Source: Hominimerdicola alba 8 (GTDB lineage Bacteria; Bacillota; Clostridia; Oscillospirales; Ruminococcaceae). Taken from it: a DNA stretch of 64,000 bases. This document shows, in pieces, positions 19,997-41,644 of this stretch. The notes below the pieces were generated by a model. That model saw only the letters and a program-made list of their open reading frames with translations. It was not told the DNA's origin and ran no database searches. The translations under genes and the position numbers were made by a program. Every line of letters begins with the position of its first letter. Positions within the stretch are counted from its first letter, which is position 1. The stretch spans positions 1 through 64,000 of the forward strand of contig NZ_ADKM02000040.1 in assembly GCF_000178155.2 (NCBI RefSeq). Reading direction: 5' to 3'.

Positions 19997-20074
19997 CCTT
20001 ATCATTCATATTTTCCCGCACGAAGCGGTATCTGCCTTATCATTCATATCTTCCCGCACGAAGCGGTATCTGCC
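19997..20074. repeat. 38-bp tandem duplication between GH5 and PHP genes
   Basis: Two copies of a 38-base unit (19997-20034 and 20035-20072, one mismatch seen) contain a small CCGC-ACGAA-GCGG hairpin. The start of a third copy runs into the PHP stop codon. Confidence 0.85.
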
Positions 20075-20773: not shown

Positions 20774-21803
20774 TGATTTGCCTTTCTATTTGCTGATATT
20801 GTCCCGCGAATGTGACTGCGGCAGAGTGTGCCGCCTGAGTTGCTTGCAGACCTATAGCAATCCGAACATAAAAATTGACAAAATTGACAAAAGCTGACAC
20901 GAAAGTATCAACTATATAAACCCCGAAAAATAGGGCTTTCAGGGGTCAAAACATAAAAGTTGACAAAATTGACGGGGTAGTAAGGATACTTTAAAAAATA
21001 AATTTACTATATATTGGAAATTATCTGCTATTTTTTCATTTTTCCCCTTACCCTGTCAACATTGTCAATTTTCTCAAAGACAAGGCTGAAACGCCGTAAA
21101 ATAGGGCTTTCAAAAGTTGACAAAGCAGTGTCGATTTATGTCAGCTTTGTCAACTTTTATATTATAGCGAAAGGATAAGACCATATTTGTGTGTACGCGC
21201 TCCGCTGTGAGGTCTTGAATTGTCGGGGCAACGCCGCAATAAAACAGCGAACCCTCGCGGAAATCCCCGATAATTTGACGGTAAACACGGTGGTGCGATG
21301 TAACACGGCGGGACGGCAAACACGGCATGGCGATAATCAAGCGGCGGGAGTAACGCCGACGCAGTCGCGAACGCCGACGCAGTCGCGAACGCCCCGCCAT
21401 GCGCCAAAAAAATGCGTTTCCAGCGGGCGAGCGTTGGTCAATAGGCGGGAGCAAGCCCCCGCCCTACACTCAGTGTTCTATCCTCACTTTGTTTGACGGC
21501 AAAGCATTCTTCCGACCATGTCAACAATTATGAATTATGAATTATGAATTACAAAAGCCCTACCCGAACGTTCCGCACACACCCGCGATAAAACAGCGAG
21601 CCCTCGCGGAAATCCCCGATAATTTGACGGTAAACACGGTGGTGTGATGTAACACGGCGGGACGGCAAACACGGCATGGCGATAATCAAGCGGTGGGGGC
21701 AAGCCCCCACCCTACACTCTGTGTTCTATCCTCACTTTGTTTGGCGGCAAAGCATTCTTCCGACCCTGTCAACAATTATGAATTATGAATTATGAATTAT
21801 GAA
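20774..21803. repeat. 1-kb repeat-rich interval
   Basis: No credible CDS. Its left part (20854-21158) has many TTGACAAA and GTCAAC motifs in inverted array, including a perfect 15-pair inverted repeat AAAAGTTGACAAAGC at 21112-21158 and a larger imperfect pair spanning about 20955-21082. The right part (about 21220-21803) carries two copies of a GC-rich body, about 21580-21800 repeating much of 21230-21550, ending in AATTATG heptamers. An 18-nt GCCGACGCAGTCGCGAAC-type tandem lies at about 21356-21391. Confidence 0.8.
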
Positions 21804-21806
21804 TTA
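21771..21806. repeat. AATTATG heptamer tandem at the cellobiose epimerase stop
   Basis: CAACAATTATG followed by repeated AATTATG units. The complement supplies the TAA stop codon of the epimerase gene at 21804-21806. One of about a dozen such sites in the window. Confidence 0.9.
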
Positions 21807-22967
21807 AAGTCTATTGATGACTTCCATGCACATTCTGCCGTTGTGATACGGGCACTTCCATGCTCCGACTATCTCTTTGTAGTCGTGCGGGATATGCTCT
21901 CCGCTTATCTCGGAATACCACTCCGAACCCTCGCGCGGGTCTATTATCTCACGCTTCACATACTCCCATACACCCTTAGCTGAGTTGAGGAAACTCTCTT
22001 CCCCGCTGTGCTGGTAGGCATTAATAAAGCCGACTATCGCTTCCGCCTGCACCCACCATACGCGGGTATGGTCTATCTTGTCGTTCTCACGCTCGTTCAT
22101 CAGCGCACCGTCAGTGTCTATGGCGATATTCTGTATGTTGTGGGAAATTTTAAGATCCATCTCGGCAAACTGCTTTTTCAGTTCTTCATCACCCAGCACA
22201 TCACACGCCCTGTCCATCAGCCATGTGGCTTCAATGTCGTGTCCGAAAGAATGTATATCACCCACCAGACCGAACTTTGTATCAAAGAAAACTTTCAGCG
22301 CATTGGTTTCGGGTGTGTATACGATGTCGCGCATCTGACCCAGCTGGAATTTCAGACGCTCCCCTACTTTTTCGTTATGGTCAGCCAGATACAGTTCTGT
22401 ATAGGCTTCGATAAGGTGGAGTATCGAGTTCATGGTCTTGTCAGCTTTAAGACCGTTCTCACTCAGCGCCTCATTGTCAACTAAATTCCACTGACGGTCG
22501 AAAGCCTCCTGATAGCCGTATTCATCGAGGGTGTTCTTCTCGATGTCATCGAACAGCCTGTACGCCAGTTCAAGGGCATGTCTGTCACCGCTCGCCCTGT
22601 AATAGCTTGAAAGCGCATATATGGCAAACGCGATGTTGTAGGTGTGCTTCATGGTGTCAGCGGGCTGACCCTTATAGTCCATCATCCAGTAAACTCCGCC
22701 GAACTCGTAGTCGATGCAGTGGTCTTTGATGAATTCGTATGCGTGCTTTGCATAGTCGAGCAGACTTTCATCTTTGAGGGTCATATAGGCGTTTGAGTAG
22801 AACCAGAGTATGCGCGAATGGAGTATAACGCCCTTATCAGCTTTCCTGTCAAGTTCCAGATCAAAGCTGAGATAGCCGTAAAAGCCGCCGTTCTCATCAT
22901 CTCTCAGCTTGTTCCAGAAAGGTATTATGTGGCTTGTGAGTTCCTGTTTAACTTCTTCTTTCATCAT
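21804..22967 (-). CDS. Cellobiose 2-epimerase
   Basis: A 387-residue cytoplasmic enzyme of the N-acylglucosamine 2-epimerase superfamily, predicted to convert cellobiose to glucosyl-mannose, feeding beta-mannosyl phosphorolysis. It closely matches what I recall of the R. albus enzyme: IPFWNKLRDDENGGFYGY, GVILHSRILWFYSNAY, GGVYWMMDYKG, KHTYNIAFAIYALSSYY, FGHDIEATWL, RVWWVQAEAIVGF and WKCPYHNGRMCMEV, with the catalytic His residues in HDIE and PYHNGR. Length is typical (about 390). The frame runs on to 23204, but GAAGGAGC lies 8 nt before the ATG at 22967, where a second ATG follows. No mannosyl-glucose phosphorylase gene is adjacent. Confidence 0.93.
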   Translation of the reverse strand: MMKEEVKQELTSHIIPFWNKLRDDENGGFYGYLSFDLELDRKADKGVILHSRILWFYSNAYMTLKDESLLDYAKHAYEFIKDHCIDYEFGGVYWMMDYKGQPADTMKHTYNIAFAIYALSSYYRASGDRHALELAYRLFDDIEKNTLDEYGYQEAFDRQWNLVDNEALSENGLKADKTMNSILHLIEAYTELYLADHNEKVGERLKFQLGQMRDIVYTPETNALKVFFDTKFGLVGDIHSFGHDIEATWLMDRACDVLGDEELKKQFAEMDLKISHNIQNIAIDTDGALMNERENDKIDHTRVWWVQAEAIVGFINAYQHSGEESFLNSAKGVWEYVKREIIDPREGSEWYSEISGEHIPHDYKEIVGAWKCPYHNGRMCMEVINRL

Positions 22968-23025
22968 GTTATATGCTCCTTCATTTTGCCCGTCAAGCGG
23001 GCATATATCCTGTGTTGATGGTTTA

Positions 23026-23054
23026 ATTATACACCATCGCAGACCGATTTTCAA
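23026..23054 (-). promoter_or_regulatory. Sigma-A promoter of the cellobiose epimerase
   Basis: On the minus strand TTGAAA (23054-23049) and TATAAT (23031-23026) with a 17-base spacer. Confidence 0.85.
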
Positions 23055-23068
23055 GGGCATCACAAATT

Positions 23069-23084
23069 GTTTACGATTGTAAAC
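23069..23084. promoter_or_regulatory. Operator-like inverted repeat GTTTAC-N4-GTAAAC
   Basis: A perfect six-base palindrome with four-base spacing, 14 bp upstream of the epimerase -35 box. The half-sites resemble LacI-family operators, and the position suits activation or distal repression. The cognate regulator is not in the window. Confidence 0.5.
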
Positions 23085-23539
23085 GATATCGGAAAAAATT
23101 TCGACAGGTAAACTGTTCTGTCCATATCTCTGACGACGCTGTCGCGAACGCCGACGCAGTCGAATGTGCCGCTCGACCCGCACGCACCCGCGATAAAACA
23201 GCAAACCATCGCGGAAATCCCCTATAATTTGGCGGTAAACACGGTGGTGTGATGTAACACGGCGGGAGCAAGCCCCCGCCCTACACCAAGTTTGCCAAAC
23301 CCGCGTTAACGCGGCATACTTCCGACCATGTCAACCAATTATGAATTATGAATTAAAAAAGCCCCCGCCATGCGCCAAAAAAATGCGTTTCCAGCGGGCG
23401 AGCGTTGGTCAATAGGCGGGAGTAACGCCGACACAGTCGCGAACGTTCCGCACACACCCGCGATAAAACAGCAAACTTTCGTTCATGTCAACAATTATGA
23501 ATTATGAATTATGAATTATGAATTATGAATTGCTAAGCC

Positions 23540-23568
23540 TTGACTTTTGCGGGAAGATGTTGTATAAT
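23540..23568 (+). promoter_or_regulatory. Sigma-A promoter of secA
   Basis: TTGACT at 23540-23545 and TATAAT at 23563-23568 with a 17-base spacer, immediately after an AATTATG heptamer tract. Confidence 0.85.
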
Positions 23569-23634
23569 ATAATAGTCTATTTATATCATTTAAAGGGAAG
23601 GCAACTGACCTAAATCAAAAAGGTGGCTAGATAA

Positions 23635-26289
23635 ATGGGATTACTTGACAAAATATTCGGCAACTACTCTAAAAAGGAGCTTGCCAAGATCGAACCTATC
23701 AAAAATAAGGTACTTGAACTGGAAGATAAGTATGCGGCAATGTCGGACAAGGAACTGGGCGAGCAGACCGCTCTGCTGAGAACTAAAGTGGAAGAGACCA
23801 GCCTTGACGATGTACTGCCCGAAGCACTGGCTGTGTGCCGTGAGGCTGCATGGAGAGTTCTGGGCAAAAAGCCCTACCCTGTACAGATAATCGGCGCTAT
23901 CGTACTGCATCAGGGTCGTATCGCAGAAATGAAAACAGGTGAAGGTAAAACTCTGGTGGCTTGTCTTGCGGCTTACGCAAACTCGCTGACAGGCAAGGGC
24001 GTGCATGTCGTTACCGTAAACGACTATCTGGCAAAGTTCCAGTCTGAGGAAATGGGCAAGGTATTCAACTTCCTGAATACTTCCATCGGCTGTGTGCTGA
24101 CAGGCATGGACAAGTCAGCCAAGAGAGATGCTTATAACGCGGATATAACCTACGGTACAAATACCGAACTGGGCTTCGATTATCTGCGTGACAACATGGT
24201 AATATACAAGAAGGATAAGGTGCAGAGAGAGCATACTTTCGCCATCGTGGACGAGGTAGACTCGATACTGATAGATGAGGCGAGAACACCTCTTATCATT
24301 TCGGGTCAGGGCGATAAGTCCACCGAACTGTACAGCATGGCTGACAAGTTCGCAAAGACACTGAAGCCCGTCACCGTCATCGAGATGGACGACAAGGCTG
24401 ATAATGACCTGCTGGACGGCGACTATATCATCGATGAAAAGGCTAAGACTGCCACCATCACCAAGAGCGGTGTCAAGAAGGCAGAAAAGGCATTCCACAT
24501 AGAGAACCTCATGGACGCTGAGAACATGACTCTGGCGCACCACATCAATCAGGCTATCAAGGCTAACGGCGTTATGAAAGAGGGCGTTGACTACATCGTC
24601 CGTGACGGCGAAGTGCTGATAGTTGACGAGTTCACAGGACGTGTTATGGACGGCAGACGTTTCAATGACGGTCTGCATCAGGCTATCGAGGCTAAGGAAG
24701 GCGTTGAGGTAAAGCGCGAGTCCAAGACTATCGCTACCATAACTTACCAGAACTATTTCAGACTGTACGGCAAGCTGTCGGGCATGACAGGTACTGCGCT
24801 GACTGAGGAAGACGAGTTCAGGGAGATATACAAGCTGGACGTTATCGAGATACCCACCAACAGACCCGTCATCAGAAAAGACCACCCCGATGTCGTTTAC
24901 AAGACTGAGGCAGGCAAGTTCGATGCGGTCATCGACCAGATAGTTGAGTGCCACGAAAAGGGTCAGCCTGTACTGGTAGGCACCGTTTCCATCGAGAAGT
25001 CCGAGCATCTGTCAAAACTGCTTAAAAAGAAAGGCGTACAGCACAACGTACTGAACGCCAAGTATCATGACAAGGAAGCTATGATAGTTGCACAGGCAGG
25101 CAAGTACGGCGCTGTTACCATCGCTACCAACATGGCGGGTCGTGGTACCGATATCACACTGGGCGGCAACGCCGAATATCTGTCGCTGGCGGCTCTGCAA
25201 AAGGACGGCTACACCGAAGAGCAGGCTGTTGAAGCCGCAAGCTACTCCAACACCGACGATGAAGAGATACTCAAGGCAAGAGAGAAGTACAGAGAGCTGT
25301 ACAAGAAGTTCGATGCTGAGGTAAAGGAAAAGGCTGAAAAGGTAAGAGAAGCAGGCGGTCTTTACATAATCGGTACAGAAAGACACGAATCAAGGCGTAT
25401 CGACAACCAGCTGAGAGGTCGTTCGGGTCGTCAGGGCGATCCGGGTGAGAGCACATTCTTCCTGTCGCTGGAAGATGACCTGATGAGAATTTTCGGCGGC
25501 GACCGCATCACAGGCATGATGGATACACTGAATGTCGATGAGCATACACCTATACAGTCGAAGATGCTTTCCAGCGTTATCGAGTCTTCACAGAAGAAGA
25601 TCGAGGGCAGGAACTTCAATATAAGAAAGAACGTACTTAACTACGATGATGTTATGAACACTCAGCGTGAGATCATCTACGGTCAGCGCCAGATGGTGCT
25701 TGACGGTGAAGATCTGCATGAGTACATCGTCAACATGATAAAGGATTTTGTCGATGACTCGGTGAACATGTATGTTCAGGGCGACATAGCTGATGACTGG
25801 AACCTTGTTGGTCTGAAAGAAAGACTGAACGGTCTGCTGACCACTGAGGACGACTTCAACTACACCCCCGAACAGATGGACGAACTGGACAGAAACGAGA
25901 TCGTAAGCACCTTGCAGGAGAGAGCACAGAAACTCTACGAAGCAAGAGAAAAGGAGCTTGGCTCTGAACTTCTGCACGAGATAGAGAGAGTCTGCCTGCT
26001 TAAGGTAGTTGATACAAAGTGGATGGATCACATCGATGACATGGAAGAACTGAAAAAGGGTATAACCCTGAGAAGCTACGGTCAGAAGAACCCTGTTGTC
26101 GAGTACAGAATGGAAGGCATGGACATGTTCGATGCGATGATAGAATCTATCCGTGAGGACACTGTAAGAATGCTGTTCACCATAAAGGTAAGGACTAACA
26201 ATGCCCCCCAGCGTCAGGAAGTCCTCAAACCGATGGAGAACCACCACAACATGAACCTGCGCAAGCGCAACAAGGATTCTAATTCATAA
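23635..26289 (+). CDS. secA: SecA preprotein translocase ATPase
   Basis: The essential motor that pushes unfolded preproteins through SecYEG at the membrane. The 884-residue chain has the standard order: N-terminal [16 protein letters not shown]1 with MKTGEGKT (99-106) and [18 protein letters not shown], the preprotein cross-linking region, NBD2 with [15 protein letters not shown] and [10 protein letters not shown], then the helical scaffold and wing. The C-terminus ends in basic residues without the CxCxS...CH zinc motif that binds SecB in proteobacteria, which is common in Clostridia. AAGGTGG precedes the ATG. The TAA stop is supplied by an AATTATG-type repeat. Confidence 0.97.
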
Positions 26290-26315
26290 TTCATAATTCA
26301 TAATTCATAATTATT
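26279..26315. repeat. Heptamer tract at the secA stop
   Basis: Four complement-strand AATTATG units (read ATTCATA) followed by ATTATTGGCAGG. The first units encode the last Asn-Ser codons and stop of secA. The body that follows (to about 26390) carries GCGACTGCGTCGGCGT. Confidence 0.9.
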
Positions 26316-26519
26316 GGCAGGGTCGGGAGAATGCCGTTTTATCGCGTGTGTGTGCTGAACGTTCGCGACTGCGTCGGCGTAACTCCCGCCGTTTGATACA
26401 CACAAACACAATTCCCCAAAAGCATGCCAAATAGCCTGCGTTGGCAGGCGGCTCGCGCGGGGGTATGGGGGAGCATTGACTGCGTCGAATGCGTGCCCCC
26501 ATTTAAGATAGGAGCTAAA

Positions 26520-27359
26520 ATGAACAGAAAATATGCACTGCTGGGCGAGAGTCTTAAACATACTATGTCACCGCCCATTCATAAAAGGCTGTTTGAACTC
26601 AAAGGCAGAGAGTTTGAGTATGAGGTAATCGAACTGCCGCCCGAACAGCTTGCACCCCATGCAGACTACCTGAAAAGTCTGGCGGGGTTCAATATAACTA
26701 TCCCACATAAGATGGGCATAATACCTCACTGCGATGCGCTGGCTGAGTCGGCAAAACGCTATAATTCGGTCAACTGCGTTGACAACAAGGACGGTATCCA
26801 CACAGGCTATAACACCGACTGTGACGGTTTCCTTGCAACGATCCGCGCTATGGGTGTCGATCTTGGCGGGCGTGTACTGCTGATAGGCTGCGGCGGTGTC
26901 GGCAGAATGATGGCGATAGAAGCCGCCCTCGCAGGTGCCGAACTTTATATCGCAGTACTCGAAAGTGATCTTCCCCTTGCAGAACAGGCGAAAAAAGAGA
27001 TCATCGCCATGAAGGAAGACGCCAACATAAACATCGTGCTGAACACTGCCATAGACAGCACCCTCAGCTATGACCTGCTGATGAATGCGACCCCTGTTGG
27101 AATGTTCCCCCGCGTTGACGGCTGCCCTGTCAGTGACGAAGTTATCGGTGCAAGCGCCGCTGTGTTCGATGTCATATACAACCCGCGCGAAACAGTCCTG
27201 CTGAGGAAAGCGCGCGAGATGGGCAAAAAAGCATCGGGCGGCATGGCTATGCTGGTATGGCAGGCAGTCAAAGCCCACGAGATATGGGACGGTGACAGCT
27301 ACACCAACGAAGAAGTGCAGGCTATCATCTCGGAAATGGAAGAGCTGGTTAATTCATAA
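26520..27359 (+). CDS. aroE: Shikimate dehydrogenase
   Basis: NADP-dependent reduction of 3-dehydroshikimate to shikimate in aromatic amino-acid synthesis. The 279-residue protein has the N-terminal substrate domain (LGESLKHTMSPPIHK, where Thr replaces the usual Ser of HSxSP; FNITIPHKMGI with the catalytic Lys), NTDCDGF, and the Rossmann domain (LLIGCGGVGRMMA), then ATPVGM and FDVIYNPRET. The frame is open from 26424, but TAGGAGC precedes the ATG at 26520. A 23-nt palindrome also found upstream of GH53 lies at 26473-26495 in its leader. Its stop lies in a heptamer repeat. Confidence 0.92.
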   Translation: MNRKYALLGESLKHTMSPPIHKRLFELKGREFEYEVIELPPEQLAPHADYLKSLAGFNITIPHKMGIIPHCDALAESAKRYNSVNCVDNKDGIHTGYNTDCDGFLATIRAMGVDLGGRVLLIGCGGVGRMMAIEAALAGAELYIAVLESDLPLAEQAKKEIIAMKEDANINIVLNTAIDSTLSYDLLMNATPVGMFPRVDGCPVSDEVIGASAAVFDVIYNPRETVLLRKAREMGKKASGGMAMLVWQAVKAHEIWDGDSYTNEEVQAIISEMEELVNS

Positions 27360-27560
27360 TTCATAATTCATAATTCATAATTATTGGCATGAATTACGGC
27401 TTTGCTGTTATAACGAAAAATCGCGCTCACAGGAACTTTCCTGCGGGCGCGATTTAATTCATAATTCATAATTCACAATTATTGGCATGAATTTACAGCT
27501 TTGCTGTTATAACGAAAAACGCGCTCACAGGGTCTTCCCTGCGGGCGCGATAATTTTTGC
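27353..27560. repeat. Two tandem copies of the heptamer-terminator repeat after aroE
   Basis: Copy 1 (27353-27455) and copy 2 (27456-27560) share the plan heptamers, ATTATTGGCATGAATT, CGGCTTTGCTGTTATAACG or a variant, and a GCGC...GCGCG hairpin of about 17 pairs, ending in GATTT or GATAATTTTT. Each could end transcription of aroE. Confidence 0.85.
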
Positions 27561-27819
27561 TAAAACGATATTCAAATGTATAGTGTGAGAGAATAAAAGC
27601 TATTTGCTATGTTTTTTGTATTTTGTGTCGGCTGACCGATTTTCCTCAAACATAGAGATTTGTGGGCAACATGTGGAAGTAACAGGGCGAGAGTTATGCC
27701 GACGCAGTCGCATATACCGACACAGTCGTGAACGTTCCGCACACACCCGCGATAAAACAGCATTCTCCCGACCCTGTCAACAATTATGAATTATGAATTA
27801 TGAATTATGAATTAATATC
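27561..27819. repeat. Repeat-derived spacer downstream of the MBL gene
   Basis: No CDS. Contains two 18-nt GCCGACGCAGTCGCATAT-type units at about 27699-27733, a CGATAAAACAGCATTCTCCC block and heptamers at 27778-27813, abutting the convergent MBL gene's TGA at 27820. Confidence 0.75.
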
Positions 27820-29400: not shown

Positions 29401-29445
29401 AATACATACCTCTTTTCTGAGTGAAAATTTATTCAAGTTGACTAT

Positions 29446-29474
29446 ATTATAACACATATTGCCGTTAAAATCAA
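29446..29474 (-). promoter_or_regulatory. Promoter of the beta-CASP gene
   Basis: On the minus strand TTGATT (29474-29469) and TATAAT (29451-29446), 17-base spacer. Confidence 0.8.
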
Positions 29475-30198
29475 GAGGGGGTTTTTTAATTCATAATTCA
29501 TAATTCATAATTCATAATTATTGGCATGAACGAAAGATAGCTGTTTCAGCGGAAAAGAGAGCGAACCATGACGCGGACAAAGTTGGAAAAGAACACAAAG
29601 CAGAGCCGAGTCAAAGCGCGCGGTCAAGCCTCGCGCCAGCAGGCTTGCGGGAGTTTGAGGGCAGAGCCCTCAATCGTGGAACGGCAAAGCAACGATACGT
29701 GCTATCTATTTGGGCGAACAATGTGATAGACGGTAAGAGGTCAAAACCATCGATAAAAACAAGCGGGCAATTCGCATAGAAAAGAGCGTACTCATTTCCC
29801 GCAAAAAACGCTCCATGTGTGAGGGCGCGAATTGCCCGCGTCTTCTAGCCGAACAGCGATAGCGTCTTCGGCGGTCGGTCATAGCTTCAAATGATAAGCC
29901 TGTCAAGATTCAAGGCACAAAACCCGGTGGGCGGGTGGGCGGGCGCCCCCCCCCCCGCGATAGAGTGTCAATATTCAAGGCACAAAAATACGCGGGCGGG
30001 AGGGAGGGGAACACCCCCATAAAAAGAGTACAACCAGCCCTCAACAGCAAGTGCGCAAAGCAGATAAGATGCACACAAAGCCAATTGTAGGGCGGGGCTT
30101 GCTCCCGCCCTTCGACCTGCATTCACGACGATAAAACGCCAAACTATACCGCAAAAGTATTCATTCTGATAATTGTGTGAAATGAATTCCCGCAGGGC
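29475..30198. repeat. Repeat-rich 0.7-kb interval
   Basis: No CDS. It begins with heptamers at 29488-29523, has a long hairpin with perfect 13-base arms GCGGGCAATTCGC (29763-29775 and 29827-29839), an inner GAGCGT/ACGCTC pair, two imperfect 22-base direct repeats at about 29901 and 29967 each followed by a GGGCGGG tract, and a run of 11 C at 29946-29956. Confidence 0.8.
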
Positions 30199-30227
30199 TT
30201 GCAATCGGGGTTAGTTTGTGCTATAAT
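30199..30227 (+). promoter_or_regulatory. Promoter of the COG0523 GTPase operon
   Basis: TTGCAA at 30199-30204 and TATAAT at 30222-30227, 17-base spacer. I see no Zur or Fur box by eye. Confidence 0.8.
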
Positions 30228-30286
30228 ATAAGATGATGCGAGCGACATGTAAATGCTCACAAATTTAAGGAAAGAAGTGTTTTAAA

Positions 30287-31501
30287 ATGACAAAGATAAC
30301 TATATTCAGCGGCTTTCTCGGTGCAGGTAAGACCACGCTGATAAAAAAACTCATAGCTGAAGGCTATAAGGGCGAAAAACTGGTGCTTATCGAGAACGAG
30401 TTCGGTCAGATAGGTATCGACGGCGGCTTTTTGCAGGACGCAGGCGTTGAGATAACCGAAATGAATTCGGGCTGCATCTGCTGTTCACTGGTGGGCGACT
30501 TCGGTAAAGCACTCAAGCAGGTGCTCGAAACCTACAAGCCCGACCGCATACTCATTGAACCATCGGGTGTCGGCAAACTCAGCGACGTTATAAAGGCTGT
30601 TCAGAATATCGATGCGCATGATGTCGTTCTCGACGGCTTTACCACCGTTGTTGACGCTAACAAGTGCAGAATGTATCAGAAGAACTTTGGTGAGTTCTTC
30701 AACAACCAGATAACTTATGCAAGCTGCCTTATCCTCAGCCATACCGCAGGCGTTTCGCAGGAAAGACTTGACGATGTCATAGCAAGGCTCCGCGCACTGA
30801 ACGACAAAGCACCCATCGTTACTACCGAGTGGGATCAGCTTACAGGCGAACAGCTTACCGATGCAATGACACAGAAGAACACCCTCGATGACGAATTGAA
30901 AGCTCTTCTGGAACAGGAGCATGAACATCACCACCATCATCACCACGATGACGATGATGACGAGCATGAGCACCACCATCACCATGACGACGATGACGAG
31001 CATGAGCATCATCACCACGACCACGATGACGAGCATGAGCACCATCACCACGACCATGATGACGAGCATGAGCATCACCACCACGACCACGATGACGAGC
31101 ATGAGCATCACCACCATGACCACGATGACGAGCATGAACATCATCACCATGACCACGATCACGGCGAGGGCTGCACCTGCGGCTGCCATGACCACGACCA
31201 TGAACATCACCATCATCATGCCGATGAAGTATTCCAAAGCTGGGGCAGAGAAACTACAAAGAAGTACACTCAGGAAGAGATAAAGGCGGCTCTAGAAGCA
31301 CTTGAAGATGAAAAGAAGTACGGTCTGGTGCTGAGAGCAAAGGGCATCGTTGAGGGCACTGACGGCACTTGGATACACTACGACTACGTTCCGGGTGTGC
31401 CCGATGTCAGAACAGGTTCAGCAAGCACCATCGGCATACTTTGCGTTATAGGCGCAGAACTTAAAGAAGATGCCGTTGCCGAACTGTTCGGCGTACAGTA
31501 A
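30287..31501 (+). CDS. COG0523/G3E GTPase with His/Asp-rich metal-binding tandem repeat
   Basis: A 404-residue G3E-family GTPase of the metallochaperone type (CobW/YciC/ZNG1 group). GFLGAGKTT is the P-loop (about 9-17), ENEFG and the metal-binding CICC motif (63-66) follow, EPSGVGK is switch II-like, but the usual NKxD is replaced by LSHTAG. Residues about 211-312 form a His/Asp/Glu tract with about five copies of an 11-residue EHEHHHHDHDD unit, then CTCGC, and the C-terminal CobW domain (about 313-404) follows. Such tracts bind Zn or Ni. Metal delivery or storage at zinc limitation is a reasonable inference. First gene of a plus-strand cluster. Confidence 0.88.
   Translation: MTKITIFSGFLGAGKTTLIKKLIAEGYKGEKLVLIENEFGQIGIDGGFLQDAGVEITEMNSGCICCSLVGDFGKALKQVLETYKPDRILIEPSGVGKLSDVIKAVQNIDAHDVVLDGFTTVVDANKCRMYQKNFGEFFNNQITYASCLILSHTAGVSQERLDDVIARLRALNDKAPIVTTEWDQLTGEQLTDAMTQKNTLDDELKALLEQEHEHHHHHHHDDDDDEHEHHHHHDDDDEHEHHHHDHDDEHEHHHHDHDDEHEHHHHDHDDEHEHHHHDHDDEHEHHHHDHDHGEGCTCGCHDHDHEHHHHHADEVFQSWGRETTKKYTQEEIKAALEALEDEKKYGLVLRAKGIVEGTDGTWIHYDYVPGVPDVRTGSASTIGILCVIGAELKEDAVAELFGVQ
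30980..31150 (+). repeat. 33-nt tandem repeat within the GTPase gene
   Basis: Coding minisatellite in which 33-base units (GAGCATGAGC...GACGAC type) encode the 11-residue His/Asp module about five times with synonymous variation, so copy number may vary between strains. Confidence 0.85.
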
Positions 31502-31520
31502 AATATAATCAGTTAAGGTA

Positions 31521-31574
31521 TGCCTTTCCTGCTGATGATAGCTTTCAGCGGAAAGGCAGCACCCTATTTTTTCA
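31521..31574 (+). terminator. Hairpin between the GTPase and the following gene
   Basis: TGCCTTTCC...GGAAAGGCA arms with GCTGA/TCAGC inside, then GCACCCTATTTTTT. It could give partial termination before the downstream gene. Confidence 0.6.
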
Positions 31575-31613
31575 AAATAACCGCACACAGCTGCATAAAG
31601 GAGGGTACACAGC

Positions 31614-32849: not shown

Positions 32850-32962
32850 CAGGGCGGCGAGGTTCGGCGGTCTGCGATATGATCTGCAAAAAGACAGCCG
32901 TATGATAATATGTCTGTATGAACGCCCTGTGCGTTAGTATAAAACAAGGAGAGTTTTACGAC

Positions 32963-33919
32963 ATGAATGAAGATAATTTTGTTCCCGTGTACCTGTTCAC
33001 AGGTTTTCTGGAGGGCGGCAAGACCACCTTTATACAGAAAACGCTGGGCGACAAGCGTTTCAACAACGGCGACAGAACACTGCTGCTGGTCTGTGAAGAG
33101 GGCATCGAGGAATACGATACTACCGATTTTGAGAAGAGCCATATCTACCTGAGGACCATTGAGGACAAAGAGGACTTCACCCCCGAAAACCTGCAAAGAC
33201 TCTATGATGAGATAAAGGGTCAGAGGGTAATGATAGAGTACAACGGCATGTGGACGATGAACGACCTGTTCAACGCACTGCCCGATGAATGGGCTATCTA
33301 CCAGATAATGAACTTCACCGATGCGAACACATTTCTCAACTACAACCAGAACATGCGCTCGCTGGTGGTGGACAAGCTGCAAAACTGCGAACTGACTGTC
33401 TTCAACCGCTTCAATAAGGCGACTATGGACAAAATGGAGTTCCACAAGATAGTCAGGGGTGTAAGCAGGCGCACAGAGATAGCTTATGAGTACACTGACG
33501 GCACTTCCGAGTATGACGATATCGAAGACCCGCTCCCATTTGATATAAACGCCCCCACCATCGAGGTGGAAGACAGGGATTATGCGCTGTGGTACAGAGA
33601 TGTCAACGAAGAACCCGATAAATACAACGGCAAGCGTGTACACCTTAAAGCTATGGCGGCACACAATCCTAAATTTCCGAAAGGCACTATAGGTCTTGGC
33701 AGACAGATAATGACCTGCTGTGTGGAAGACATAACTTTCTGCTGGTATGCAAGCACCTACGACAAGCCCATCGACCTTAAAGAGCCGAAATGGGTAGATG
33801 TCACCTTCACTGTGAAGATGCAGAAGCATCCGCTGTACAAGGGTAAAGGACCTGTGCTGGTAGTTGAGAACCTTACCGAAGCATCTGCACCTGCACAGCC
33901 GGTAGCAACGTTTTATTAA
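32963..33919 (+). CDS. G3E-type P-loop protein fused to a YcgQ/DUF1980-like C-terminal domain
   Basis: A 318-residue protein. The N-terminal half has VYLFTGFLEGGKTTF, a P-loop of the CobW kind, but lacks the CxCC metal motif. The C-terminal third (about 215-305) contains NGKRVHLKAMAAHNP and GLGRQIMTCCVEDITFCWY, close to the R-x-x-x-x-C-C-x-A-D signature of DUF1980/TIGR03943 proteins (YcgQ type, partner of the YcgR permease). The combination suggests a soluble metal- or redox-linked partner of a membrane system; that is inference. The frame is open upstream to 32918, but AAGGAGAG precedes the ATG at 32963. The stop TAA lies in a heptamer repeat. Confidence 0.72.
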   Translation: MNEDNFVPVYLFTGFLEGGKTTFIQKTLGDKRFNNGDRTLLLVCEEGIEEYDTTDFEKSHIYLRTIEDKEDFTPENLQRLYDEIKGQRVMIEYNGMWTMNDLFNALPDEWAIYQIMNFTDANTFLNYNQNMRSLVVDKLQNCELTVFNRFNKATMDKMEFHKIVRGVSRRTEIAYEYTDGTSEYDDIEDPLPFDINAPTIEVEDRDYALWYRDVNEEPDKYNGKRVHLKAMAAHNPKFPKGTIGLGRQIMTCCVEDITFCWYASTYDKPIDLKEPKWVDVTFTVKMQKHPLYKGKGPVLVVENLTEASAPAQPVATFY

Positions 33920-34150
33920 TTCATAATTATTGGCAGGCATTACGGCTTTGCTGTTATAACGAAAAACGCGCTCACAGGAACTCACCTGTGAGCGCGATAT
34001 TTTTTTGCTAAAACGGTATTCTTCCGTACATGCCAATAATTATGAATATGACTATCCCTTTAGCACAAGGGCTGAAAATGCGGTAAACAAAAGGATAATT
34101 GAACGCAGGATATCTTCCCCCCTGCGGCGGGGGAAAGATATCCGCCAACC
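33917..34150. repeat. Terminator-type repeat followed by a second hairpin element
   Basis: 33917-34013 is a heptamer-body repeat with the CGCGCTCACAGG...CCTGTGAGCGCG hairpin followed by seven T. From 34044 to 34146 is a different repeat, TGACTATCCCTTTAGCAC...AAAAGGATAATTGA, with a GATATCTTCCCCC...GGGGGAAAGATATC stem. The second type recurs at 39947-40043. Confidence 0.85.
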
Positions 34151-34211
34151 ACCTTAAGTTCTGTAAAACCGCCGTTTTGGTGGTGTGTCAGCGGGATAAC
34201 CAAGTTTTGAA

Positions 34212-36104: not shown

Positions 36105-36134
36105 TTACTTTCAGCTCCTTAGAATTATCTTTGT

Positions 36135-36161
36135 TTAGCACTCCCTTACTCTGAGTGCTAA
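36135..36161. promoter_or_regulatory. CIRCE operator (HrcA-binding site) of htpG
   Basis: TTAGCACTC and GAGTGCTAA are perfect 9-base arms separated by 9 bases, the exact CIRCE consensus. Confidence 0.97.
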
Positions 36162-36165
36162 ATCT

Positions 36166-36193
36166 ATTATACCACCAACAGCAGGAATTTCAA
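36166..36193 (-). promoter_or_regulatory. Sigma-A promoter of htpG
   Basis: On the minus strand TTGAAA (36193-36188) and TATAAT (36171-36166), 16-base spacer, directly upstream of CIRCE. Confidence 0.85.
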
Positions 36194-36450
36194 GAGGTTA
36201 CACAAAATAGCTGTTATTTATTTACCGTTTATTCATAAATCCCTTTCGAGCACGCTCTGTTTCGGAATGGCTATGCCCGCAAACAGGTGAAGCTGGAATG
36301 CGGCGGTTTCGGCATTACCGACCTTTCTGACTCACGCACGCTTTTTGAACTCACCTGATTTTGTTTGACAGCAAAGTGTCCGCTAAAACGGCATTCTCGC
36401 GGTCATGCCAACAATTATGAATCAAAAAGAGCGACCGCTCACGACCGCTC

Positions 36451-37431
36451 TTATTGTCTGCTCTTTAATATCATTATGATGTGTCCCGCAATGTTCTCCA
36501 GCGATAAGCTGATGTTCGCCGCGCCATTTTCTGCCGCCGCTTTCGGCATGCCGTATACGACCGCGCTCTGTTCGCTCTCAGCGATATTGTACGCGCCCAT
36601 TTTACGCATATCCAACATACCCTTAGCGCCGTCACTGCCCATACCTGTCAGTATAACACCGATAGCGTCGCTTTTTGCCGCGTATGCCGCCGAATCAAAC
36701 AGTACATCTACCGACGGACAATGCCCGTTGACTTTCACACCCGGTTCACTGTTGACAAAATAGCCTTTCTTATCTTTAAAAAGCCGCAGATGTCTTCCGC
36801 CCGCCGCTATGACCACCATGCCGCGTTTTAAATAGGTGCCGCTATGCGCTTCTACCACCGTCAGCGGCAGGCTTGCATTCAGCTGAGATGCGTACAGCTT
36901 GGTATAACCCTCAGGCATGTGAAGCACGCACACCACAGGCGGGCAGTCCGCAGGCAGACCTTTCAGCACCACAGGCAGAGCATTCGTGCTCCCCGTAGAA
37001 CCGCCTATAACTATGACTTTCCCCGTTTCCGGCGGAGTTATCAGCTTCGGTCTGACGATATTCGTACAACCCCGAATGCTTGTTGCCAGCCGCGCCAGCA
37101 AACGTTCATTTCCGCCCTCACCGACATGTATATTTATCACATCGAGCGCCCCCGCCTGTATCAGCGAGGATTTTGATACGTTCTGAGCCAATATCGCTAT
37201 GACAGGCACAAAATAGCGAGGTCCCAGCCCGCGAATATATTCAGCCGCATCAAAACCGACCGTCTTGCTGACATCAAGCACCAGCGCCGCAGGTTTACCG
37301 CCCGCAAGCATCTGCTTTGCCGTTGCCAGCCTGCCCGCCCTTAAGACAGTGCCGTCAGGCAAATGCTTTTTAAGACCGACCGTGAGCAGTTCCTGCATCT
37401 TAAGGCTGTCTGAAATTATAAAAATAGTCAT
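36451..37431 (-). CDS. cheB: CheB-type protein-glutamate methylesterase
   Basis: Removes methyl groups from chemoreceptors or related signalling proteins. The 326-residue protein has a receiver domain (about 1-120; Asp 53 in LVLDVSK is the likely phospho-acceptor, although only one of the two N-terminal acidic residues is obvious) and a catalytic domain with IGGSTGS (Ser 145), VLHMPEGY (His 171) and GMGSDGAKG (Asp 267), the complete triad. Its ATG overlaps the cheR stop by the ATGA arrangement, so the two are translationally coupled. No receptor, CheA or flagellar gene is in view. Confidence 0.92.
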   Translation of the reverse strand: MTIFIISDSLKMQELLTVGLKKHLPDGTVLRAGRLATAKQMLAGGKPAALVLDVSKTVGFDAAEYIRGLGPRYFVPVIAILAQNVSKSSLIQAGALDVINIHVGEGGNERLLARLATSIRGCTNIVRPKLITPPETGKVIVIGGSTGSTNALPVVLKGLPADCPPVVCVLHMPEGYTKLYASQLNASLPLTVVEAHSGTYLKRGMVVIAAGGRHLRLFKDKKGYFVNSEPGVKVNGHCPSVDVLFDSAAYAAKSDAIGVILTGMGSDGAKGMLDMRKMGAYNIAESEQSAVVYGMPKAAAENGAANISLSLENIAGHIIMILKSRQ

Positions 37432-38261
37432 TTACCGCTCACCTCCTTGCGGTATATTGCAGGCTTCTGCTTAACGTAAGGCATATCCGCAGGGGCAGAT
37501 TCAGCATGCCCTATATAGAGATATCCACCGTCTTCAGTGACATCATAAAAACGCCTGCACAGATGTGATTTGGTATCATCATCAAAATATATCATCACGT
37601 TGCGGCAGAGTATCAGGTCGAACTTTTTCTTGAAACCTATCTCTTCCATCAGGTTGTGGTACTTGAATATCACCTTGCTCCGCAGACTTTCCTTGACTTG
37701 ATAAAGCCCGTGAGAGCGCTGTTCAAAGTACTTTCTGCGCCATTCTTCGGGCAGATCGTGCAATGCGTTTTCGGTATAGACTCCCCTTGCCGCCGACCTT
37801 AGGGCGTTGAAGGAAATATCCGTCGCGAGTATCTTGAGATCCCAGTCATGCTGTCTGAAACCGAAATACTCATCAAGGCACATGGCGAGATTGTAAGGTT
37901 CATTACCGAAAGAACAGCCCGCCGACCAGATACGCAGGTCATGGTCTTTCACGGCTTTTTCTGCCTGAGGCAGGAACACCTCACGGAAGTGGTCGAAATG
38001 TTCGGACTCACGCATAAAATATGTGTGATTGGTGGTCAGCCTGTTTATCAGGTTAGCTACTTCTCTGCCTGAATTATCATCAAACACAGCTTCGAGGTAT
38101 TCCGAAAAATTACGGAAACCGCAGTCAGCCACATAGTTTGCCAGTCTTGACTGTACAATAAATTGTTTACCTTCGAGGTCGATGCCGTAGCCGGCTTTAA
38201 CGAAGTTAACAAGTCTGATAAAATCATGTTCAGAAATATTGGTATCACAGCCAACGGACAT
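37428..38261 (-). CDS. cheR: CheR-type methyltransferase
   Basis: S-adenosylmethionine-dependent glutamate methyltransferase of receptor adaptation, 277 residues. The N-terminal helical domain is followed by a Rossmann methyltransferase domain with TYFMRESEHFDHF, IWSAGCSFGNEPYNLAM (variant of SAACSTGEEPYSIAM), ILATDIS, and FDLILCRNVMIYF. AAGGAG precedes the ATG at 38261, which is preferred over upstream in-frame codons. The 92-bp palindromic element lies 25 nt upstream. In a possibly non-motile species the pair may serve non-flagellar signalling such as type IV pili; that is inference. Confidence 0.92.
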   Translation of the reverse strand: MSVGCDTNISEHDFIRLVNFVKAGYGIDLEGKQFIVQSRLANYVADCGFRNFSEYLEAVFDDNSGREVANLINRLTTNHTYFMRESEHFDHFREVFLPQAEKAVKDHDLRIWSAGCSFGNEPYNLAMCLDEYFGFRQHDWDLKILATDISFNALRSAARGVYTENALHDLPEEWRRKYFEQRSHGLYQVKESLRSKVIFKYHNLMEEIGFKKKFDLILCRNVMIYFDDDTKSHLCRRFYDVTEDGGYLYIGHAESAPADMPYVKQKPAIYRKEVSGK

Positions 38262-38286
38262 CGGACAAACTCCTTTCGGTAAGATA

Positions 38287-38378
38287 TATAGCAATCCGCC
38301 TTAAAATCCAGTCACAAGACCCATAGATCCCAGCTTTTGCGACTGGATTTTGTGAATTTAAAAAGTTGGATCGTTATA
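38287..38378. repeat. 92-bp palindromic element, copy B
   Basis: Same length and core as copy A (17959-18050). TATAGCAATCC at one end matches GGATCGTTATA at the other, and the inner arms AAAATCCAGTC and GACTGGATTTT are a perfect 11-base pair. It lies between the cheR promoter and start codon. Confidence 0.85.
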
Positions 38379-38382
38379 GTAA

Positions 38383-38411
38383 ATTATAACACATTTTCCA
38401 CATAATTTCAA
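38383..38411 (-). promoter_or_regulatory. Sigma-A promoter of cheR-cheB
   Basis: On the minus strand TTGAAA (38411-38406) and TATAAT (38388-38383), 17-base spacer. Transcription should begin at the edge of the 92-bp element. Confidence 0.85.
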
Positions 38412-39097
38412 GAGGTTTTGTAAATTTTGAAGAAATCAAAGCCGTTCCGAAAGCGAAGCAGAGCAAAATCACAAAGCAGTGCGCGGATAGAGCGCGCGGT
38501 CAGGCGCTCACCGACGGTGCAGAAACCATGTGCAGACAACGAATCGCATGCTCCGCATTCAGCCGACTGCCATTGTGAATAAAAAGTAAACTCACCACAA
38601 TTCGACAGAAATGGCTTTTATCGGCTTTTCCGAACTGTCATACTCGTAACAAAGCAGTTACAGACCCGCCGTGAAGTAAAAGTATACAAGACCTTTTGAA
38701 GTACGTTTTTTAGTACGTGGCTGTAACCGAATAATTACAGTGTGGTTACAGTTTTCAGAAATTCAACACACAGCAGTTGAAACTTTGAAAAGTTTTCAAC
38801 ACTTAAAAGGCGGTTATTAGGTTTTTACACCTACTTTTTAACACTTTCAACAGAGTTTTCAACATTTTTGTTGTTTAAAACCTGACTTTTCAACTGTCCA
38901 AAAATGTTCGTGTAACCATTTCTTTACCACTTGTTACAGACAACAGGAACATTCGTTCAGCAATGTAACTTTTTTCGCGCAAAGTGCCGATAAATCTATG
39001 TTTCAGCCATTTGGCAAAAACAGTTAGTATATCTCCCTAAACAAAAAAAGAGGTTCAATATTGTGAAAAATGTCGAGAAAAAAGTCTTAACAAGCTG
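38412..39097. other. Gene-free interval rich in TTTTCAAC motifs
   Basis: About 690 bases without a CDS. Between 38640 and 38960 TTTCAAC or its complement GTTGAAA recurs about six times, together with GTTACAG and GTTGAAACTTTG...TTTTCAAC inverted pairs, in AT-rich sequence. No recognised RNA or origin gene is adjacent. Confidence 0.6.
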
Positions 39098-39126
39098 TTT
39101 ACAAATGGTATAAAATGTGTTATAAT
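39098..39126 (+). promoter_or_regulatory. Sigma-A promoter of the phosphoribosyltransferase-like gene
   Basis: TTTACA at 39098-39103 and TATAAT at 39121-39126, 17-base spacer, leader about 55 nt. Confidence 0.85.
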
Positions 39127-39186
39127 AATAGCGTGGAAACACATGAATTTTTCGGGCGGTCAGCCGCCATAGAGGAGGAATATAAA

Positions 39187-39816
39187 ATGGAAGACCGTAT
39201 GCAGACTATACAGTCCATCAAAAACAAAAAGGTGCAGATAGGCGTTATTCCCGGTCATTATGCCACCAACCACTCACACGTAAATTTCTATGTGGATATG
39301 ACTTCTATCAAGACCAGCATGAAGATGGCAAAAGAAGCCGCCGCTGAACTGGCAAGCACTTACGCAAACACCCATATCGACACAATAATCTGCCTTGAAG
39401 GTACCGAGATACTCGGCGGTTTCCTCGCAGACCAGCTGTCGCAGGCGGGCATAAATAAGGGCGAAGATATAAACCTCATCACCCCTGAGCTGAACGCCGT
39501 TAACCAGATGATCTTCCGCGACAATACCCAGAAGAAGGTCTGGGGCAAGCAGATACTCCTGCTCATATCCAGCGCATCAACAGGCAAAAGTATCGGCAGA
39601 GCCGTTGACTGCCTGCAATACTACAGCGGCAAACTGACGGCTATAGGCGCTATATTCTCAGCTATTGAAAAGTACGGCGATATCAGCATACACGCGCTGT
39701 TCACCGACAAGGATCTCCCACACTACGAGAACTACGCCGCAAATTCCTGCCCCATGTGCAAGAGCGGCAAGAAAATAGACGCGCTCATAAACAGCTTCGG
39801 CTACTCAAAACTTTAA
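39187..39816 (+). CDS. Phosphoribosyltransferase-like protein
   Basis: A 209-residue cytoplasmic protein with the type I phosphoribosyltransferase fold: CLEGTEILGGFLADQLSQAG resembles the N-terminal hood region and QILLLISSASTGKSIGRAVD occupies the PRPP loop. The usual acidic pair before that loop (VDDVxxTG) is replaced by ISSASTG, so catalysis is doubtful and a PRPP- or nucleotide-sensing role is possible. A C-terminal NSCPMCKSGKKI contains a CxxC. The frame opens at 39115, but GAGGAGGAATAT before the ATG at 39187 sets the start. Confidence 0.6.
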   Translation: MEDRMQTIQSIKNKKVQIGVIPGHYATNHSHVNFYVDMTSIKTSMKMAKEAAAELASTYANTHIDTIICLEGTEILGGFLADQLSQAGINKGEDINLITPELNAVNQMIFRDNTQKKVWGKQILLLISSASTGKSIGRAVDCLQYYSGKLTAIGAIFSAIEKYGDISIHALFTDKDLPHYENYAANSCPMCKSGKKIDALINSFGYSKL

Positions 39817-39817
39817 T

Positions 39818-40187
39818 AAAAAGCAAAGCGTCCGCAGTTCACTCACTGCGGACGTTTTTCGCTAAAAAATCGCGCCCACGACCTCCCGTGAGCGCGATCA
39901 TTTTCGGTATATCGGCAAGCCCGAATGCCTGCCAACAATTATGAATATGACTATCCCTTTAGCACACCAACTAAAAATGCTGTGAACAAAAGGATAATTG
40001 AGCGCCCCATATCTTTCCCCCGCCTTCGGTGGGGGAAAGATATACAACCAAATTGGGATAAAAGCAAAGCGTCCGCAGTTCACTCACTGCGGACGCTTTT
40101 TTGCTAAAAAATCGCGCCCACGACCTCCCGTGAGCGCGATCATTTTCGGTATATCGGCAAGCCCGAATGCCTGCCAACAATTATGAA
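39818..40187. repeat. Duplicated terminator-repeat block between the PRTase-like gene and proS
   Basis: Two near-identical copies of about 128 nt (39818-39946 and 40059-40187): GCGTCCGCAGTTCACTCACTG hairpin, an ATCGCGCCCACGACCTCCCG hairpin and an end GCCTGCCAACAATTATG. Between them lies a copy of the 34044-type repeat with a 13-pair ATATCTTTCCCCC stem at 40004-40043. No CDS. Confidence 0.85.
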
Positions 40188-40201
40188 TTATGAATTATGA
40201 A

Positions 40202-41644
40202 TTAATAAGCCTTGCCCCAGAGTACCATCTTCTTTGCAGGCTTGCCGCAGCATACGCAGACATCGCTGAGGTTCTCCTGCTCGAAAGGTATGCAGCGTGA
40301 GCCAACGCCTGTCAGTTCCTTTACCTTGTCTTCGCATTCCTCGTTGCCGCACCACATAGCCTTGATGAAGCCGTCGCCGTTGTCTTCCAGCGCCTTGATT
40401 ATCTCATCGGTGGTCTTGCATGCGTAAGTCCTGCGCTCGCGGTTCTCAAGAGCCTTCTGATAAATGCCCTCGCGTACTGCTTCCAGCTTTGCATTTACAG
40501 TTTCAACAAGCTCGGTCAAAGGTGTGAATGTCTTTTCACGGTCGTGTCTTGTTACGATAACGCACTGACCGTTCTCAATGTCCTTAGGACCCAGTTCAAT
40601 GCGCACAGGCACACCCTTCATCTCATACTCGGCAAACTTCCAGCCGGGCGACTGCTCGCTGTCATCGACCTTTACGCGGATACCTGCGGCTTTAAGCTGT
40701 TCGCAGACCTCCTGCGCCTTTTCAAGAACGCCTTCCTTGAACTGCTGTATAGGCACGATAACTGCCTGTATAGGTGCAACAGCAGGCGGCAGAACAAGTC
40801 CGTTGTCATCGCCGTGTGTCATTATTATAGCACCTATCAGTCGTGTGGTAACGCCCCACGAAGTCTGGTGAGGATAGCTCAGCTTGTTGTCTCTGCCTGT
40901 GAACTGTATGTCGAACGCCCTTGCAAAGCCGTCACCGAAATAGTGTGAAGTGCCTGCCTGGAGCGCCTTGCCGTCGTGCATCAGCGCTTCGATAGCGTAT
41001 GTAGCCTCAGCGCCCGCGAACTTGTCGCTGTCGGTCTTTCTGCCCTTTACTACAGGCATAGCCAGCTCTTTCTCGCAGAAATCTGCATAGCAGTTGAGCA
41101 TGCGCTCAGTTTCTTCGATAGCCTCTTCTGCTGTTTCGTGTATGGTGTGACCCTCCTGCCAGAGGAATTCTCTCGAACGCAGGAAAGGACGGGTGGTCTT
41201 CTCCCATCTTACAACGCTTACCCACTGATTGTACAGCTTGGGCAGGTCGCGGTAGCTGTGTACGATGTTTGCATAGTGCTCGCAGAACAGTGTTTCAGAG
41301 GTAGGTCTTACACACAGTCTGTCCTCCAGCTTCTCACTGCCGCCGTGTGTTACCCACGCAACTTCGGGCGCAAAACCCTCAACGTGGTCTTTTTCCTTCT
41401 GCAAAAGGCTTTCGGGAATGAACATGGGCATGCAGACATTCTCGTGACCCAGTTCCTTGAATCTGGTGTCCAGAATACGCTGTATATGCTCCCAGATAGC
41501 GTAGCCGTAAGGTCTTATTACCATACAGCCCTTAACGCTTGTGTAGGCTATCAGTTCAGCCTTTGTACAGATGTCGGTGTACCACTTTGCGAAATCCTCG
41601 TCCATTGAGGTTATCGCATCGACCATTTTCTTGTTCTTTGCCAT
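40202..41644 (-). CDS. proS: Prolyl-tRNA synthetase (archaeal/eukaryotic type)
   Basis: Charges tRNA-Pro. The 480-residue chain lacks the long editing insertion of the bacterial type and has class II motifs: [45 protein letters not shown] with the following GDD, then the anticodon-binding domain and a C-terminal zinc-like extension ending [18 protein letters not shown]. This type is common in Clostridia. TTAGGAG precedes the ATG. The TAA stop lies in an AATTATG repeat. Confidence 0.96.

What the first reader, a model, noticed from the sequence alone, without database searches (positions are those of the whole stretch)
21525..40204. Dispersed heptamer repeat whose AATTATG end abuts stop codons
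At least a dozen sites carry 1-5 tandem AATTATG units (or complement). In several cases the heptamers overlap or immediately follow the stop codon of an unrelated gene: cellobiose epimerase (21804), secA (26287), aroE (27357), the YcgQ-like gene (33917) and proS (40202), with the MBL gene (27820) 6 nt away. In all of these the non-heptamer body extends away from the gene, whichever strand the gene is on, so orientation is polar. A common body end, ATAAAACNGCATTCT...CCGACC...TGCCAACAATTATG, is visible at many sites. Exceptions are 23490-23531 (next to the secA promoter) and 29488-29523.
Basis: seen in the sequence. Interest (0 to 1): 0.78.

Follow-up and report, generated by a model that had tools for sequence, protein, structure and literature searches.

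The report
Polar repeat element capping gene ends
A family of short repeated DNA elements in the rumen bacterium Ruminococcus albus and its relatives begins with a string of seven-base units that carry stop codons in every reading frame, and many copies sit right at the stop codon of an unrelated gene, mostly facing the same way.

Summary
The genome (R. albus clade) has 105 matches to (AATTATG)3. Of 86 distinct arrays with two or more units, 54 lie within 12 nt of, or contain, the stop of a gene reading toward the heptamers; 8 of 86 do on the other side. Two partly overlapping sets from related genomes agree (54/88 vs 9/88; 22/25 vs 1/25), as does an unrelated heptamer, RTGAGGA, in G001 (16/34 vs 1/34). 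Motif-weighted expectation is 3-11% against 61/94 observed.

Genes enter the array in all three frames about equally (17:13:14): the array supplies a stop whatever the frame. Stop and non-stop sites share a T-tract flank.

Best reading: a non-autonomous, polar, short interspersed element with a three-frame stop cap. Its mover is unknown: no PF00078 reverse transcriptase in this genome or its sister, no array beside the Y1 transposases found, few inverted ends, no general target duplication. REP elements near stops and TAACTGA heptamers are the nearest precedents. Why gene ends are preferred over nearby 3'UTR is unexplained.

The parts
21526..21551 (+). heptamer array, 3 units, inner copy of a tandem pair of elements
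21774..21806 (+). heptamer array, 4 units; holds the TAA stop (21804-21806) of the epimerase gene on the - strand
23337..23355 (+). heptamer array, 2 units, not at a stop
23493..23531 (+). heptamer array, 5 units; exception, heptamer end faces the secA start 106 nt away
26280..26312 (-). heptamer array, 4 units (gene-sense AATTCAT); secA stop 26287-26289 is the TAA of the second unit
26309..26345 (-). core next to the secA array (AATTATTGGCAGGGTCGGGAGAATGCCGTTTTATCG in gene sense)
27350..27382 (-). heptamer array, 4 units; aroE stop 27357-27359 is the TAA of the second unit
27455..27480 (-). heptamer array, 3 units (one variant), second copy of a 98-bp head-to-tail duplication (27357-27551)
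27782..27814 (+). heptamer array, 4 units, 5 nt from the stop (27820) of the MBL/beta-CASP gene
29487..29519 (-). heptamer array, 4 units; exception, heptamer end faces the MBL-gene start; preceded by GAGGGGGTTTTTT
29516..29905 (-). long body (family F1), a chain of stem-loops
33917..33928 (-). heptamer array, 1 unit; holds the stop (33917-33919) of the cobW/DUF1980 gene
34038..34047 (+). heptamer end of an inverted second copy; one of the minority of inverted pairs
36413..36422 (+). heptamer end, 1 unit, 30 nt from the stop (36451) of the next gene, after a terminator-like hairpin of that gene
39937..39946 (+). heptamer end, 1 unit, inner copy of a 242-bp duplication
40179..40204 (+). heptamer array, 3 units; holds the proS stop (40202-40204)

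Best explanation
A family of non-autonomous, polar, short interspersed elements. In gene sense each starts with (AATTCAY)n, 1-5 units and most often 4, then AATTRTTGRCAKG, then a body of very variable length. Copies enter DNA in one orientation at a sense-strand T-tract (with a modest purine excess before it) that ends in T/AA. The array reads TAATTCA..., and 7 is not a multiple of 3, so three units put TAA in all three frames. A gene hit in its last few codons or just past its stop is closed at once, with little change in protein length. Shown: placement, polarity, flank signature, random entry frame, no array at some orthologous stops. Inferred: that copies move, that the T-tract is the target and not acquired later, that the cap makes gene-end landings tolerable. 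Not explained by this alone: why gene ends are hit so much more than 3'UTR 13-60 nt away. Existing arrays may also serve as targets or crossover points, giving head-to-tail copies and changed bodies.
For: Stop proximity 54/86 vs 8/86 on the other side in G000; 54/88 vs 9/88 in the named-genome loci used (80 of the 88 held); 22/25 vs 1/25 in loci of six clade genomes; 16/34 vs 1/34 with a different heptamer in G001. 61 of 94 non-nested sites at a stop against 2.7-11% of motif-bearing non-genic positions. T share at -6 to -3 is 0.41-0.67 at 61 stop sites and 0.47-0.70 at 30 non-stop sites against 0.13-0.27 at 304 control gene ends. In-array stops use the three frames 17:13:14 (p 0.74). Against array-less orthologs the protein end is unchanged in 6 of 12 genes and within 3 codons in 3 more (read by eye). 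Patchy presence on the species tree.
Against: No recombinase found; Y1 and RT families are not linked to it and other families were not searched. No clean insertion with both junctions and a matching empty site was found; most sites are shared with the sister genome, so movement, if any, is old. Some array-less orthologs lack the T-tract (L123_3092: GGGCTTTGAT vs GGACTGTGATAA; L131_1229: GGGCTTTTGT vs GGTATCATCTGA), so it may be acquired. Stop sites score lower than non-stop sites on the flank motif (mean 2.5 vs 5.0; the 5.0 is self-scored). The purine excess is modest (0.62-0.79 at stop sites vs 0.53-0.67 in controls at -13 to -9). Gene calling was home-made, and array stops close any open frame, which could inflate counts, though many genes are confirmed by homologs.
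Confidence: 0.55

Rival explanations
1. Miniature inverted-repeat transposon (MITE) moved by a DDE transposase, with heptamers as the outer part of the terminal repeat; most copies have lost or overwritten the far end.
For: 33912-34047 in the window has two inverted ends; some RTGAATA relatives in other Ruminococcus species show inverted heptamer arrays around a hairpin.
Against: Only 18 inverted pairs within 1 kb among 140 core hits, against 77 direct pairs, and inverted pairs can also come from two convergent genes each with its own copy. No general target duplication (94 sites, mean longest match 6.80 vs 6.26-6.76 in 20 shuffles; slightly above the controls, with three matches of 14-20 nt not examined).
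Confidence: 0.22
2. SINE-like retroposition: cDNA primed at a T-tract nick on an RNA ending in the heptamer tail, giving a conserved tailed end, variable tail length and graded truncation of the far end.
For: Against an F1 profile (cut by me at 395 columns) 16 of 108 copies run to 370-386, 12 stop between 101 and 320, 80 are shorter or unmatched (copies were chosen by the heptamer end); T-tract flank.
Against: No PF00078 reverse transcriptase in G000 (98.8% complete) or G018 (97%); the two RT loci in G001 carry no RTGARKA array in about 3.6 kb each. Truncation can also come from deletion or nested insertion, and short copies may simply share only the end.
Confidence: 0.1
3. Not mobile now: a vertically inherited 3'-end module (stop cap plus terminator) kept by selection and spread by gene conversion.
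For: Sites mostly shared with the sister genome (6 of 7); possible relics at proS in G008, G026 and G002; many bodies contain terminator-like hairpins (by eye).
Against: Matches to the three-unit pattern range from 0 to 139 per genome within the genus and sites are patchy.
Confidence: 0.12
4. Plain microsatellite slippage (as in cyanobacterial heptamer repeats, recalled), with stop association by chance.
For: Unit number varies between relatives at the same gene.
Against: A conserved core follows the array, the flank signature and polarity are strong, chance placement rejected.
Confidence: 0.01

Closest known systems
REP elements of Escherichia coli (RAYT-associated)
   Same: Short, dispersed, intergenic, in many copies; a share lies within 15 nt of a stop codon: 446 of 4,072 in PMC12306157, which also quotes 260 of 496 from earlier work and ribosome stalling for these (passages read).
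   Different: Here the end is a tandem heptamer array, not a palindrome, and the stop codon is often inside the repeat. The share at stops here, 54/86, is far above the 11% but not far above the 52% of those two counts. No array lies beside the Y1 transposases found.
TAACTGA direct repeats of marine Beggiatoaceae
   Same: Tandem heptamers, 2-6 copies, 169 sets in one genome, stop codons in all three forward frames, can overlap the ends of coding sequences (PMC4679880, abstract and passages read).
   Different: Those lie mostly just upstream of start codons, and no attached element is described in the passages I saw; here the arrays face stop codons and lead into a conserved core and body.
Bacterial MITEs such as ERIC and Correia elements (recalled)
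   Same: Small, non-autonomous, dispersed, can contribute stop codons (recalled).
   Different: Those have terminal inverted repeats and TA duplications (recalled); mostly not found here.
Group IIC introns (recalled)
   Same: Insert next to a T-tract in one orientation (recalled).
   Different: They need a terminator hairpin and a reverse transcriptase (recalled); here the 61 stop-site flanks fold no better than 120 control gene ends (mean z -0.14 vs -0.27) and no PF00078 match exists in G000 or G018.

Membership tests
MITE | terminal inverted repeats | tested here: not met
   18 inverted pairs within 1 kb among 140 core hits; a minority of copies, e.g. 33912-34047, do show them
MITE | target site duplication | tested here: not met
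   94 sites: mean longest flank match 6.80; 20 shuffles 6.26-6.76, mean 6.53; the three longest matches (14-20 nt) were not examined one by one
REP/BIME | palindromic repeat unit | tested here: not met
   the strongly conserved part is the heptamer array plus AATTRTTGRCAKG, not a palindrome; stem-loops are predicted in the F1 body
REP/BIME | cognate Y1 transposase flanked by the repeat | tested here: not met
   12 PF01797 loci in 5 of 6 genomes searched, none with an array within the about 3 kb held
SINE/LINE-like retroelement | reverse transcriptase in the host | tested here: not met
   PF00078: 0 in G000, 0 in G018; 2 in G001
SINE/LINE-like retroelement | one conserved tailed end, other end truncated | tested here: inconclusive
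   graded end points in 108 copies, but later deletion and nesting would look alike
Group IIC intron | target downstream of a terminator hairpin | tested here: not met
   only the 3 3'UTR sites have strong hairpins as a group (mean z -3.34); 61 stop sites do not (mean z -0.14)
Short tandemly repeated repetitive (heptamer) sequences | tandem heptamers without an attached element (recalled) | tested here: not met
   arrays lead into a conserved core

The most novel reading that the evidence does not exclude
An integration system that reaches DNA through the end of translation or transcription: copies are steered to the few bases around terminating ribosomes or uncoupled RNA polymerase, in sense orientation, and carry a three-frame stop array as a built-in cap. 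Different Ruminococcus species use unrelated heptamers that keep a sense stop codon (TAA in R. albus, TGA in G001), as if the cap were the selected property.
Probability: 0.15. Interest if true: 0.9.

Novelty: new variant of a known kind. Interest (0 to 1): 0.62.

Why it matters
Mobile DNA usually settles between genes. Here most copies settle at the last codons of unrelated genes, some of them housekeeping (secA, proS), and often bring the stop codon with them, in two species with different heptamers. If insertion is steered to gene ends, it would be a new kind of target choice; if it is only tolerated there, the three-frame cap is a neat way for an element to avoid harming its host. Either way the element rewrites the stop codon and 3'UTR of dozens of genes (61 of 94 sites in the part of the genome examined).

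Tried and rejected
TA-target (IS630-like) idea: the first ortholog pairs suggested a TA duplication restoring TAA, but entry frames are random and flanks show no general duplication, so dropped. In-frame stop codon as the target: rejected by the even use of frames. Terminator hairpin as target: rejected for stop sites. Target motif plus purging from genes as a full explanation of stop enrichment: rejected, motif sites are not enriched at stops. Rfam: none of 5 matches in 20500-41000 reaches its gathering score. Y1 and RT families as movers: not linked or absent; other recombinase families not searched. Independent gain of the cobW-gene insertion in G025 and in G000/G018: undecided, the key branch has support 44. 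Literature: no held paper has all four terms on repeats in Ruminococcus albus, and none prints AATTATGAATTATG; of the listings I opened only the two analogues cited. Four of the 88 loci (L032, L054, L078, L105) are not titled Ruminococcus; my rough estimate of chance matches is about one; not followed. Eight of the 88 (L111-L118) were not used.
Full report
What was checked. The window carries 14 element ends with 1-5 tandem AATTATG units. The two-unit pattern occurs 26 times with up to one mismatch against 0.08 expected. The genome that holds the window (G000, 4.05 Mb, 136 contigs) has 105 matches to three units and 120 to the element end TGYCAAYAATTATGAA; the reversed control patterns give none. 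Contig lengths tie G018 to MAG RUG10798, G003 to R. albus KH2T6, G004 to R. albus AR67, G008 to MAG RGIG4311, G013 to MAG RUI259 and G026 to MAG SRR873597_bin.128. G002 is probably R. albus 7 and G001 R. bicirculans, from recalled replicon sizes.

Anatomy. I describe it in the sense of the gene that ends at it. First comes (AATTCAY)n, then AATTRTTGRCAKG, then roughly 25 loosely conserved bases, then a body that differs greatly between copies. Of the 117 ends selected (a different selection from the 117), 27 have 1 unit, 15 two, 23 three, 46 four and 6 five. The commonest body, F1, is a chain of stem-loops; in 17 aligned copies 9 of 50 predicted pairs have at least one copy changed on both sides, but the covariation term is +0.42, that is, no overall support from covariation. 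Against an F1 profile that I cut at 395 columns, so its true far end is not defined, 16 of 108 copies run to 370-386, 12 stop between 101 and 320, and 80 match 86 positions or fewer, 17 of those none. Arrays can lie head to tail: six copies 67-74 bp apart in L123, and copies at multiples of 62 bp in L133.

Stop codons. With a home-made gene caller on 47 own stretches (501.8 kb, 410 genes), the gene on the heptamer side ends toward the array at 96 of 117 ends, on the body side at 37; 61 of the 96 stops are within 10 nt of or inside the array. In the set, after setting aside 23 nested or tandem copies, 61 of 94 sites are at a stop, 3 farther down a 3'UTR and 30 elsewhere. With a simpler rule (sense ORF of at least 100 codons, stop within 12 nt or inside; arrays of two or more units, distinct flanks, at least 330 nt from a stretch end) the counts against the other side of the array are 54/86 vs 8/86 in G000, 54/88 vs 9/88 in 80 of the 88 named-genome loci, and 22/25 vs 1/25 in loci of six clade genomes; 13-60 nt upstream of the array there are only 5, 7 and 0. 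The last two sets share five genomes (G003, G004, G008, G013, G026) and some sites, and the first two are sister genomes in large part, so they are not independent. All five G002 loci held show it.

Null models. The zone counted as 'stop' makes up 8.7% of non-genic positions (both strands, elements masked). Weighted by a flank-motif score learned from the 33 non-stop sites only, the stop share is 2.7-11%. Against 61 of 94 the binomial p is 4e-41 for positions and 7e-35 to 2e-71 for the motif weightings. Shared ancestry makes sites less independent than the test assumes, but the excess is about six-fold or more.

Frame and target. Where the stop lies in the array (44 of 61), genes enter in the three frames 17, 13 and 14 times, offsets 16 and 23 pooled (p 0.74). 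So the array is not placed by reading the stop codon; it supplies one in whichever frame arrives. The other 17 of 61 keep a stop at the edge or up to 12 nt upstream. At -6 to -3 from the array T is 0.41-0.67 at stop sites, 0.47-0.70 at non-stop sites and 0.13-0.27 at 304 control gene ends (aligned on the first base of the stop); the purine excess at -13 to -9 is modest, 0.62-0.79 and 0.60-0.80 against 0.53-0.67. Stop-site flanks do not fold better than control gene ends (mean z -0.14 for 61 vs -0.27 for 120); the three 3'UTR sites sit on terminator-like hairpins.

Relatives. Orthologs show arrays at the same stop with other unit numbers and other bodies, or no array. At the cobW/DUF1980 gene G000, G018 and G025 have an array with three different bodies, while G002, G003, G004, G008, G013, G023 and G026 have none. 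At proS, G000, G018, G013, G003 and G004 are filled, G008, G026 and G002 look like relics, G025 lacks it and G023 is unclear. In 12 genes with an array-less relative, protein length is unchanged in 6, within 3 codons in 3 and unclear in 3 (by eye). For secA the comparison is with G008; G003, G004, G013 and G025 have a longer tail, but the array-less G002, G008 and G026 lack it too, so its loss need not be due to the array. Some array-less orthologs lack the T-tract, which weakens the view that it was there before insertion. The two closest genomes share 6 of 7 comparable sites. The tree of three proteins leaves gain versus loss at the cobW gene open.

Spread. Three-unit arrays occur in 8 of 29 genomes of the genus; ATAATTRTTGRCAKG in 6 of 13 others tested, all R. 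albus-like. RTGARKA arrays occur in 14 of 29. In G001 the unit is RTGAGGA. Its arrays also sit at sense stops (16/34 vs 1/34; 18/34 vs 2/34 with 80 codons), follow a T-rich flank, and some lead into a body that by eye resembles F1 (ATTGGCA in L340); others lead into a terminator-like hairpin. So position and polarity persist while the heptamer changes, and both heptamers carry a stop codon in gene sense (TAA; TGA). RTGAATA arrays of other species are in several loci inverted pairs around a hairpin and are only weakly stop-linked (5/29 vs 0/29).

Mechanism. The data fit a polar, non-autonomous interspersed element tolerated best at gene ends because of its cap. What moves it is unknown. G000 and G018 have no PF00078 match. 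The 12 Y1 loci found carry no arrays. Only 18 inverted pairs occur among 140 core hits, and flank repeats are near control level. Tolerance alone does not explain why copies lie in the last codons or within 12 nt of the stop rather than 13-60 nt beyond it; steering by translation or transcription is possible and untested.

Known things. REP elements near stops in E. coli (PMC12306157, passages) and TAACTGA heptamers with three-frame stops near starts in Beggiatoaceae (PMC4679880, abstract and passages) are the nearest. I found no description of this element in the held library by the searches named; most subscription papers are not in it.

Noticed in passing
window 34048-34202 and 39947 onward; L091 3889-4062 vs L160: A second repeat family with inverted ends (TGACTATCCCTTTAGCACACC ... 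GGTGTGTCAGCGGGATAACCA) makes a duplication of about 10 bp at one clean empty site (L091 vs L160) and often sits inside or beside heptamer arrays; 28 exact matches to one end (GGGATAACCA) in the own stretches.
   Followed up: partly
window 30938-31163: 33-bp tandem repeat, about 7 copies, coding a His/Asp/Glu-rich stretch inside the ORF 30287-31501, perhaps metal-binding.
   Followed up: no
L312, L321, L334, L313, L317, L338 (other Ruminococcus species): RTGAATA heptamer arrays in inverted pairs around a hairpin (such as AAGGTATCGTCC...GGCGATACCTT); perhaps the symmetric form of the same kind of element.
   Followed up: partly
window 39819-40188 and 27357-27551: Head-to-tail duplications (242 bp and 98 bp) of 3'UTR segments that each end in a heptamer array.
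   Followed up: no
window 19997-20078: Two 38-bp direct repeats, 97% alike, spanning the gap between two minus-strand ORFs.
   Followed up: no
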